A stretch of 64,000 bases of DNA from positions 186,001 to 250,000 of the forward strand of contig WBUH01000004.1 of the NCBI GenBank assembly GCA_008933805.1. The letters are read 5' to 3'. The stretch is from Bacteroidota bacterium. Lineage in GTDB: Bacteria; Bacteroidota; Bacteroidia; UBA8524. The position numbers and the translations under genes are program-made. The notes under the pieces were generated by a model. It saw only the letters and a program-made list of their open reading frames with translations. It made no database searches and had not been told where the DNA came from. This document shows positions 28,022 to 28,157 of this stretch, piece by piece; the first letter of the stretch is position 1; every line of letters starts with the position of its first letter.

Positions 28022-28157
28022 AAATGGTGCCGTAAGTGAGGAATACTTCGAGAACATTTGTGTGTCGCAGGTTCAAGTCCTGCCCCCGGCGTTAGTTGGG
28101 GTAGTTCAGTTGGTTAGAACAACAATAGAAAAGACCCTTGCTGCCCTTTGCCCATTT
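28022..28157 (+). ncRNA. Y RNA-like unit 7 with a compact circularly permuted tRNA
   Basis: The closing helix is AAATGG/CCATTT and the upper helix AGTGAGG/CCTTGCT (two G-U pairs). The core is GGTGCCGTAAGTGAGGAATA then CTTCG, and the 3' strand carries TGCCCTTTGC. The T-arm GCAGG-TTCAAGT-CCTGC (28067-28083) is followed by acceptor strand CCCCGGC, a 4-nt GTTA loop, acceptor strand GTTGGGG (28095-28101) and D-arm GTTC-AGTTGGTTA-GAAC (28104-28120). So the acceptor end is closed by a tetraloop and the molecule opens at the anticodon side. Confidence 0.78.

What the first reader, a model, noticed from the sequence alone, without database searches (positions are those of the whole stretch)
28022..28157. 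Minimal permuted tRNA module with a GTTA-closed acceptor stem
T-arm, CCCCGGC, GTTA, GTTGGGG and D-arm follow each other directly, so the acceptor end is sealed by four bases and the module joins the Y stem at the anticodon side. This is a compact solution for presenting the tRNA elbow (D and T loops) to a tRNA-binding enzyme.
Basis: partly seen in the sequence, partly recalled or inferred. Interest (0 to 1): 0.72.

Follow-up and report, generated by a model that had tools for sequence, protein, structure and literature searches.

The report
Bacterial Y RNA mimicking tRNA elbow
The marked stretch is one of ten small non-coding Y RNA genes in a row, partners of the ring-shaped Ro60 protein encoded in the same window, and it carries a rearranged piece of transfer RNA; this kind of molecule is already known (YrlA), but a set of ten with different tRNA-like heads is unusual.

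Summary
In detail: at 28067-28120 a T-arm, a 7-bp acceptor stem closed by GTTA and a D-arm follow each other, mounted at the anticodon side on a two-part stem (28019-28160). It is unit 7 of a ten-gene array (27242-28505) that shares TGYCG...TWCTTCG and a conserved 3' strand. The window also encodes a Ro60/TROVE protein (730-2265). Most likely a 24-kb integrated element, bounded by an imperfect 20-bp repeat, now separates the two; 35 of 36 Ro60 loci of relatives hold the motif, mostly directly downstream. Covariation supports all three helices (all seven acceptor pairs change on both sides), and tRNA tertiary-core positions (U8-A14, 15-48, U54-A58, D-loop GG with U55-C56) are kept. A model built from relatives only finds the unit at E about 1e-16. 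This is the topology of YrlA-type bacterial Y RNAs, known circularly permuted tRNA mimics, so the finding is a new member of a known kind. The GTTA loop is not special: closing loops vary from 4 to 22 nt. Less expected are the array size, a second permuted subclass (units 8, 9) with G55 and no D-loop GG, and other head types in sister units. Partners were not tested.

The parts
28019..28160 (+). Unit 7 (the finding): YrlA-type Y RNA gene, Y stem plus permuted tRNA module
28019..28027 (+). Lower Y stem, 5' strand (pairs with 28152-28160)
28028..28050 (+). Conserved 5' motif TGCCGTAAGTGAGGAATACTTCG, with upper-stem strand 28035-28041
28067..28083 (+). T-arm GCAGG-TTCAAGT-CCTGC
28084..28101 (+). 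Acceptor stem CCCCGGC/GTTGGGG closed by GTTA (28091-28094)
28104..28120 (+). D-arm GTTC-AGTTGGTTA-GAAC
28136..28160 (+). 3' strand: upper stem 28136-28142, conserved internal-loop strand, GC 28150-28151, lower stem 28152-28160
27242..27374 (+). Unit 1: class-B-like module (GGGC/GCCC stem, hairpin, T-arm with G55)
27383..27608 (+). Unit 2: permuted module like unit 7, with a 92-nt acceptor-end insertion
27619..27724 (+). Unit 3: T-arm module without D-arm
27730..27805 (+). Unit 4: plain hairpin head
27804..27879 (+). Unit 5: plain hairpin head
27911..28011 (+). Unit 6: hairpin plus T-arm module
28166..28297 (+). Unit 8: permuted variant, T-loop with G55, D-loop without GG
28299..28434 (+). Unit 9: permuted variant, acceptor AAGCC-TTCG-GGCTT, T-loop with G55, D-loop without GG; ends approximate, its lower-stem partner scored low in the automatic search and was set by hand
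28431..28505 (+). Unit 10: plain hairpin head
730..2265 (+). Ro60/TROVE-domain protein, 511 aa, with DVSGSM metal-site motif of the vWA domain
2371..2446 (+). tRNA-Asp(GTC) gene directly after the Ro60 gene
   Evidence: a tRNA-Asp follows Ro60 in L069 too
2585..2604 (+). Left copy of imperfect direct repeat TGTTGTACCTATGTTGTACC (inferred integration boundary)
2639..3874 (+). Tyrosine integrase of the inferred integrated element
26935..26954 (+). Right copy of the direct repeat (inferred integration boundary)

Best explanation
The stretch 28019-28160 is a gene for a YrlA-type bacterial Y RNA and one of ten in an array that belongs to the Ro60 gene at 730-2265. The two-part Y stem with its conserved internal loops (TGCCG / TACTTCG / TTTGC) is taken to be the Ro60 binding site (inferred from known Y RNAs). 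The head is a tRNA circularly permuted at the anticodon: T-arm, acceptor stem sealed by a loop, D-arm. It keeps the tertiary core and elbow of tRNA but has no CCA end, no anticodon and a free acceptor sequence, so it should not be charged or decode. It most likely works as a tether or gate: the stem holds Ro60 and the elbow attracts proteins that read the tRNA elbow (modification enzymes such as TruB and Dus, or an exoribonuclease such as PNPase), so that structured or damaged RNA is steered into or away from the Ro60 ring. Shown: structure by covariation, tertiary-core conservation, linkage to Ro60. Inferred: expression, Ro60 binding, partners and effect.
For: Ro60 in the same window. The motif pattern occurs nine times in the genome, all in this array; unit 10 departs from it by one base. 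Of 36 Ro60 loci of Bacteroidota 35 hold the motif, 124 copies on the gene's strand, 112 within 1.5 kb downstream, none on the other strand. Model R1 has a match near the TROVE gene in at least 24 of 28 TROVE-positive genomes of 395 (read off), and the same model finds RNAs that Rfam accepts as YrlA (L124, L137). Helices covary; tertiary-core positions invariant or covarying. Published: YrlA modified by DusA and TruB, Y RNA tethers Rsr to PNPase (PMC8394870); YrlA crystal structure 6CU1 is a circularly permuted tRNA (PMC11472068).
Against: No expression, binding or probing data. Unit 7 scores 38.7 bits on Rfam YrlA, below the gathering score of 69. No Bacteroidota promoter consensus (TTTG-N17-23-TAnnTTTG) next to the array, so how it is transcribed is open. 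The Ro60 gene now lies 25 kb away. RtcB, the neighbour of Ro60 in RNA-repair operons, is on another contig.
Confidence: 0.82

Rival explanations
1. Remnant of a tRNA gene cluster: the junction of two tandem copies of one tRNA gene gives T-arm, 3' acceptor strand, spacer, 5' acceptor strand and D-arm, so the module may be a decaying pair of tRNAs without function.
For: Model R1 also hits junctions of tandem tRNA genes in other genomes (L135, L138, L149-L151); Ro60 loci of Emticicia and a Cytophagales MAG hold tRNA genes mixed with Y units. This is a likely evolutionary origin.
Against: The halves resemble different tRNAs of this genome and only at 20/27 and 21/26 identity; the flanking Y stem, the motif and helix covariation are kept across relatives; no complete tRNA flanks the unit.
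Confidence: 0.05
2. Decoy or competitive inhibitor of tRNA-cleaving or tRNA-binding toxins rather than a tether.
For: Bacterial Ro60 and Y RNAs sit in RNA-repair operons induced by cleaved tRNAs, and the tRNA-like domain has been proposed as a competitor of the nuclease (PMC7790460). The array offers several tRNA-like heads.
Against: Permuted units lack an anticodon arm, the usual target; published tethering to PNPase favours a tether.
Confidence: 0.15
3. Cis-acting or mobile repeat with tRNA-like folds (for instance an integration hotspot) and no trans function.
For: An integrase and a direct repeat lie between Ro60 and the array, and a genomic repeat has inserted in unit 2.
Against: Strand bias (124 to 0), position next to Ro60 in relatives, covarying helices.
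Confidence: 0.03

Closest known systems
YrlA, Rfam RF02553 (Y RNA-like; Salmonella YrlA, PDB 6CU1)
   Same: Order T-arm, acceptor stem with closed end, D-arm, on a two-part Y stem with a 5' bulge (UGC...) and a 3' bulge; linked to a Ro60/Rsr gene; tRNA elbow kept.
   Different: Y-stem motif TGYCG...TWCTTCG differs from Rfam's GGCGAAUGC...CUAC; score below the gathering threshold; ten-member array with other head types.
Deinococcus radiodurans Y RNA / RYPER (Rsr-Y RNA-PNPase)
   Same: Ro60 orthologue with a Y RNA expected to tether it to an effector.
   Different: Partner not tested here.
Salmonella rsr-yrlBA-rtcBA RNA-repair operon
   Same: Ro60 homologue followed by Y RNAs.
   Different: RtcB is on another contig here; array of ten instead of two.
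Permuted tRNA genes and viral tRNA-like structures
   Same: tRNA fold with changed chain order.
   Different: Product is not a tRNA: no CCA end, no anticodon, sealed acceptor.

Membership tests
YrlA-type bacterial Y RNA | Rfam RF02553 score at or above gathering threshold (69 bits) | tested here: not met
   38.7 bits, E 1.5e-6 for the stretch; a model of its own relatives recovers RNAs that pass the threshold. This score is Rfam's curation limit, not a structural trait
YrlA-type bacterial Y RNA | tRNA-like domain in the order T-arm, closed acceptor stem, D-arm | tested here: met
YrlA-type bacterial Y RNA | Two-part stem from pairing of the 5' and 3' ends, with conserved internal loops | tested here: met
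   lower and upper helices in the folds of the units and partner search; no formal covariation test of this stem was run
YrlA-type bacterial Y RNA | Encoded near a Ro60 (TROVE) gene | tested here: met
   same window, 25 kb apart with an inferred insertion between; directly downstream in most relatives
YrlA-type bacterial Y RNA | Elbow determinants for D- and T-loop enzymes | tested here: met
   invariant positions and covarying 15-48 pair
YrlA-type bacterial Y RNA | Binding to Ro60 and to an effector protein | not testable with these tools
   needs experiment
tRNA gene | Contiguous cloverleaf with anticodon arm and CCA-bearing acceptor | tested here: not met
   ARAGORN and Rfam find only tRNA-Asp at 2371

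The most novel reading that the evidence does not exclude
The array is a display set: one Ro60 with ten Y RNAs whose heads copy different parts or versions of tRNA. Canonical permuted elbows (units 2, 7), a re-specified elbow with G55 and no D-loop GG (units 8, 9, also in L068 and L076), T-arm-only heads, a pseudoknot-like T-arm head (unit 1, class B) and plain hairpins; relatives add non-permuted tRNA bodies and, in one genome, a 23S rRNA fragment. Each head would recruit a different RNA-handling protein to the Ro60 ring.
Probability: 0.4. Interest if true: 0.62.

Novelty: new member of a known kind. Interest (0 to 1): 0.42.

Why it matters
It places tRNA-mimicking Y RNAs, with covariation support for the tertiary core, in many Bacteroidota Ro60 loci and shows that one Ro60 can come with as many as ten Y RNAs with different heads. 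That gives a natural panel for the open question of which proteins Y RNAs recruit to Ro60. It also warns that tRNA finders call some Y units tRNAs (L058, L069).

Tried and rejected
Rfam at gathering threshold: no match in the array, only tRNA-Asp. Chen 2014 and Burroughs and Aravind 2016 are not held, so I could not check whether these Bacteroidota arrays were already listed. A single source tRNA for unit 7 was rejected: best identities 20/27 and 21/26. GTTA as a special closure was rejected. Bacteroidota promoter scan at chance level. A 23S-fragment Y unit was sought in 36 genomes (most Ro60-bearing) and in viral contigs: only the original. In the automatic annotation of permuted modules some rows took a wrong D-arm (for example L061, L068 9559, L071); one search used a hand-checked set, and L068 9559 remains among the 25, where the pair given for 15-48 is the same with the right D-arm. 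The G55 versus GG association is post hoc.

Full report
Observation. The sequence at 28022-28157 is as described: T-arm 28067-28083, CCCCGGC, GTTA, GTTGGGG, TA, D-arm 28104-28120. It sits on a stem whose lower part (28019-28027 with 28152-28160) and upper part (28035-28041 with 28136-28142) are separated by a bulged T, a GC/GC step and an asymmetric internal loop. Against the whole window, a covariance model made from 21 modules of other genomes finds it at 65.5 bits, E about 1e-16; the next match scores 23 bits and is unit 2 of the same array.

Surroundings. The stretch is unit 7 of ten on the + strand between 27242 and 28505. All share a variable but complementary outer helix, TGYCG, a variable upper helix, T(A/T/C)CTTC, a variable head and a 3' strand that ends in GC or AC before the outer helix. 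The partner strand of unit 9 scored low in the automatic search and was set by hand. The motif pattern has nine matches in the 4.29-Mb genome, all here, against one for the reversed-pattern control; unit 10 departs from the pattern by one base. Heads differ: canonical permuted tRNA (units 2, 7), permuted variant (8, 9), class-B-like (1), T-arm without D-arm (3, 6), plain hairpin (4, 5, 10).

Partner gene. ORF 730-2265 is a TROVE/Ro60 protein (Pfam TROVE 110 bits, weak vWA_Ro60 match), with two solved TROVE relatives (9l5y, 9kop). A tRNA-Asp follows it. Between them and the array lie an integrase (2639-3874) and an imperfect direct repeat of 20 bp with 19 identities at 2585 and 26935. I infer an integrated element of about 24 kb; without it the array would start about 0.6 kb after Ro60. 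In 36 Ro60 loci of Flavobacterium, Pedobacter, Saprospiraceae, Emticicia and others, 35 hold the motif, most often starting 60-250 nt after the end of Ro60: 124 copies on the Ro60 strand, 112 of them within 1.5 kb downstream, none on the other strand. In L069 and L075 the copies lie upstream of Ro60. In a sample of 395 genomes of the phylum 28 have TROVE; reading together, at least 24 of these have a model match near the TROVE gene.

Structure test. Twenty-four distinct permuted modules, two of them from the window, were cut to T-arm, acceptor strands and D-arm and aligned. For the named structure 97.9% of cells pair (shuffled 76.8%), 13 of 16 pairs have a change on both sides, score 0.669 against 0.226, and sliding by one to three columns destroys it. 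All seven acceptor pairs change on both sides. Modules were picked partly because they pair, and relatedness of the Flavobacterium sequences inflates the counts; the variety of pair types at each acceptor position is the stronger evidence. The tertiary core follows tRNA rules: in 25 modules U8-A14 25/25, U54-A58 25/25, U55-C56 25/25, GG in the D-loop 25/25, pair 15-48 G-C 22 and A-U 3, never mixed (the search pattern required part of these letters, namely A14, a purine at 15, the D-loop GG and C56/A58, so the 15-48 pairing is the independent test; two of the three A-U cases are related to each other). The closing loop of the acceptor ranges from 4 to 22 nt (92 in unit 2), so it is unconstrained.

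A second elbow. Four permuted modules (units 8 and 9, L068 9972, L076 6478) have G instead of U at T-loop position 55, and none has a D-loop GG; no tRNA found in this genome shows such a T-loop. Against the U55 modules with GG this looks like a joint change (Fisher p 4e-5), as expected if the D-loop/T-loop contact was rebuilt; the comparison is post hoc, and the U55 set was collected with GG required, so the p value is only indicative.

Other heads. Class B, conserved in most Flavobacterium loci, has a GGGG/CCCC stem, an inner helix, a hairpin and a T-arm, with a possible three-pair pseudoknot (GUC/GAC); support is moderate (score 0.240 against 0.142; the number of pair types does not exceed shuffles). 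In L069 and L075 some Y units carry a tRNA body in normal order with the Y stem in place of the acceptor stem. One unit of L075 contains a stretch that matches 23S rRNA of this genome at 30 of 33 positions; it was not found elsewhere.

Known systems. Rfam YrlA has the same order of elements; unit 7 matches it end to end at 38.7 bits, below the gathering score, while the model of its relatives recovers accepted YrlA members. YrlA is described as a stem plus D, T and acceptor arms, a substrate of DusA and TruB, and part of a Rsr-PNPase machine (PMC8394870); its structure 6CU1 is a circularly permuted tRNA (PMC11472068). From my own knowledge, Chen et al. 2014 reported Y RNAs near Ro60 in more than 250 species; I could not read that paper. 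So the given finding is a new member of a known kind. The array size and head diversity may be partly new.

Mechanism. Shown here: fold, conservation of the tertiary core, linkage to Ro60. Inferred: the stem binds Ro60, the elbow binds a tRNA-reading protein, and the RNA acts as tether or gate. Origin: tandem copies of one tRNA gene produce this order at their junction, and the model does hit such junctions, which suggests how the permutation arose.

Noticed in passing
L075 6832-7063 (MAG Cytophagales bacterium): A Y unit with near-perfect outer stem whose head contains CGTAAATATAACGGTCCTAAGGTAGCG..., 30 of 33 positions as in 23S rRNA (H69/H71 region): possibly a Y RNA that mimics rRNA. Rfam LSU models did not reach E 1.
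   Followed up: partly
L069 5813-5940 and L075 7370-7497: Y units with a non-permuted tRNA body; ARAGORN calls the first one tRNA-Thr, and calls another Y unit (L058 9605-9673) tRNA-Glu. Automatic annotation may hide Y RNAs as tRNAs.
   Followed up: partly
L056, L069, L075: Ro60 loci with 11 to 15 predicted tRNA genes, in L069 and L075 interleaved with Y units.
   Followed up: partly
window 27143-27236: Strong stem-loop just before unit 1: 12-bp perfect inverted repeat TTACTCACCTTG/CAAGGTGAGTAA around a 10-bp hairpin with GAAA loop; unidentified RNA-like element.
   Followed up: partly
window 2268-2366: Between Ro60 and tRNA-Asp a multibranched fold (AACACCCTCT/AGAGGGTGTT enclosing three hairpins, -56 kcal/mol for 2262-2370).
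   Followed up: no
window 27467-27528 and 27035-27102: Two copies of a palindromic intergenic repeat (CTTGTTTCAGGA..., CCGACC..GTCGGCA); one sits inside the acceptor loop of Y unit 2.
   Followed up: partly
window 2371-2446: tRNA-Asp is a second, low-scoring (47 bits) Asp gene in the genome; a tRNA-Asp follows Ro60 in L069 as well.
   Followed up: partly
phage records: 95 phage records encode relatives of this Ro60 protein (best 35% identity, Halogranum tailed virus 1).
   Followed up: no
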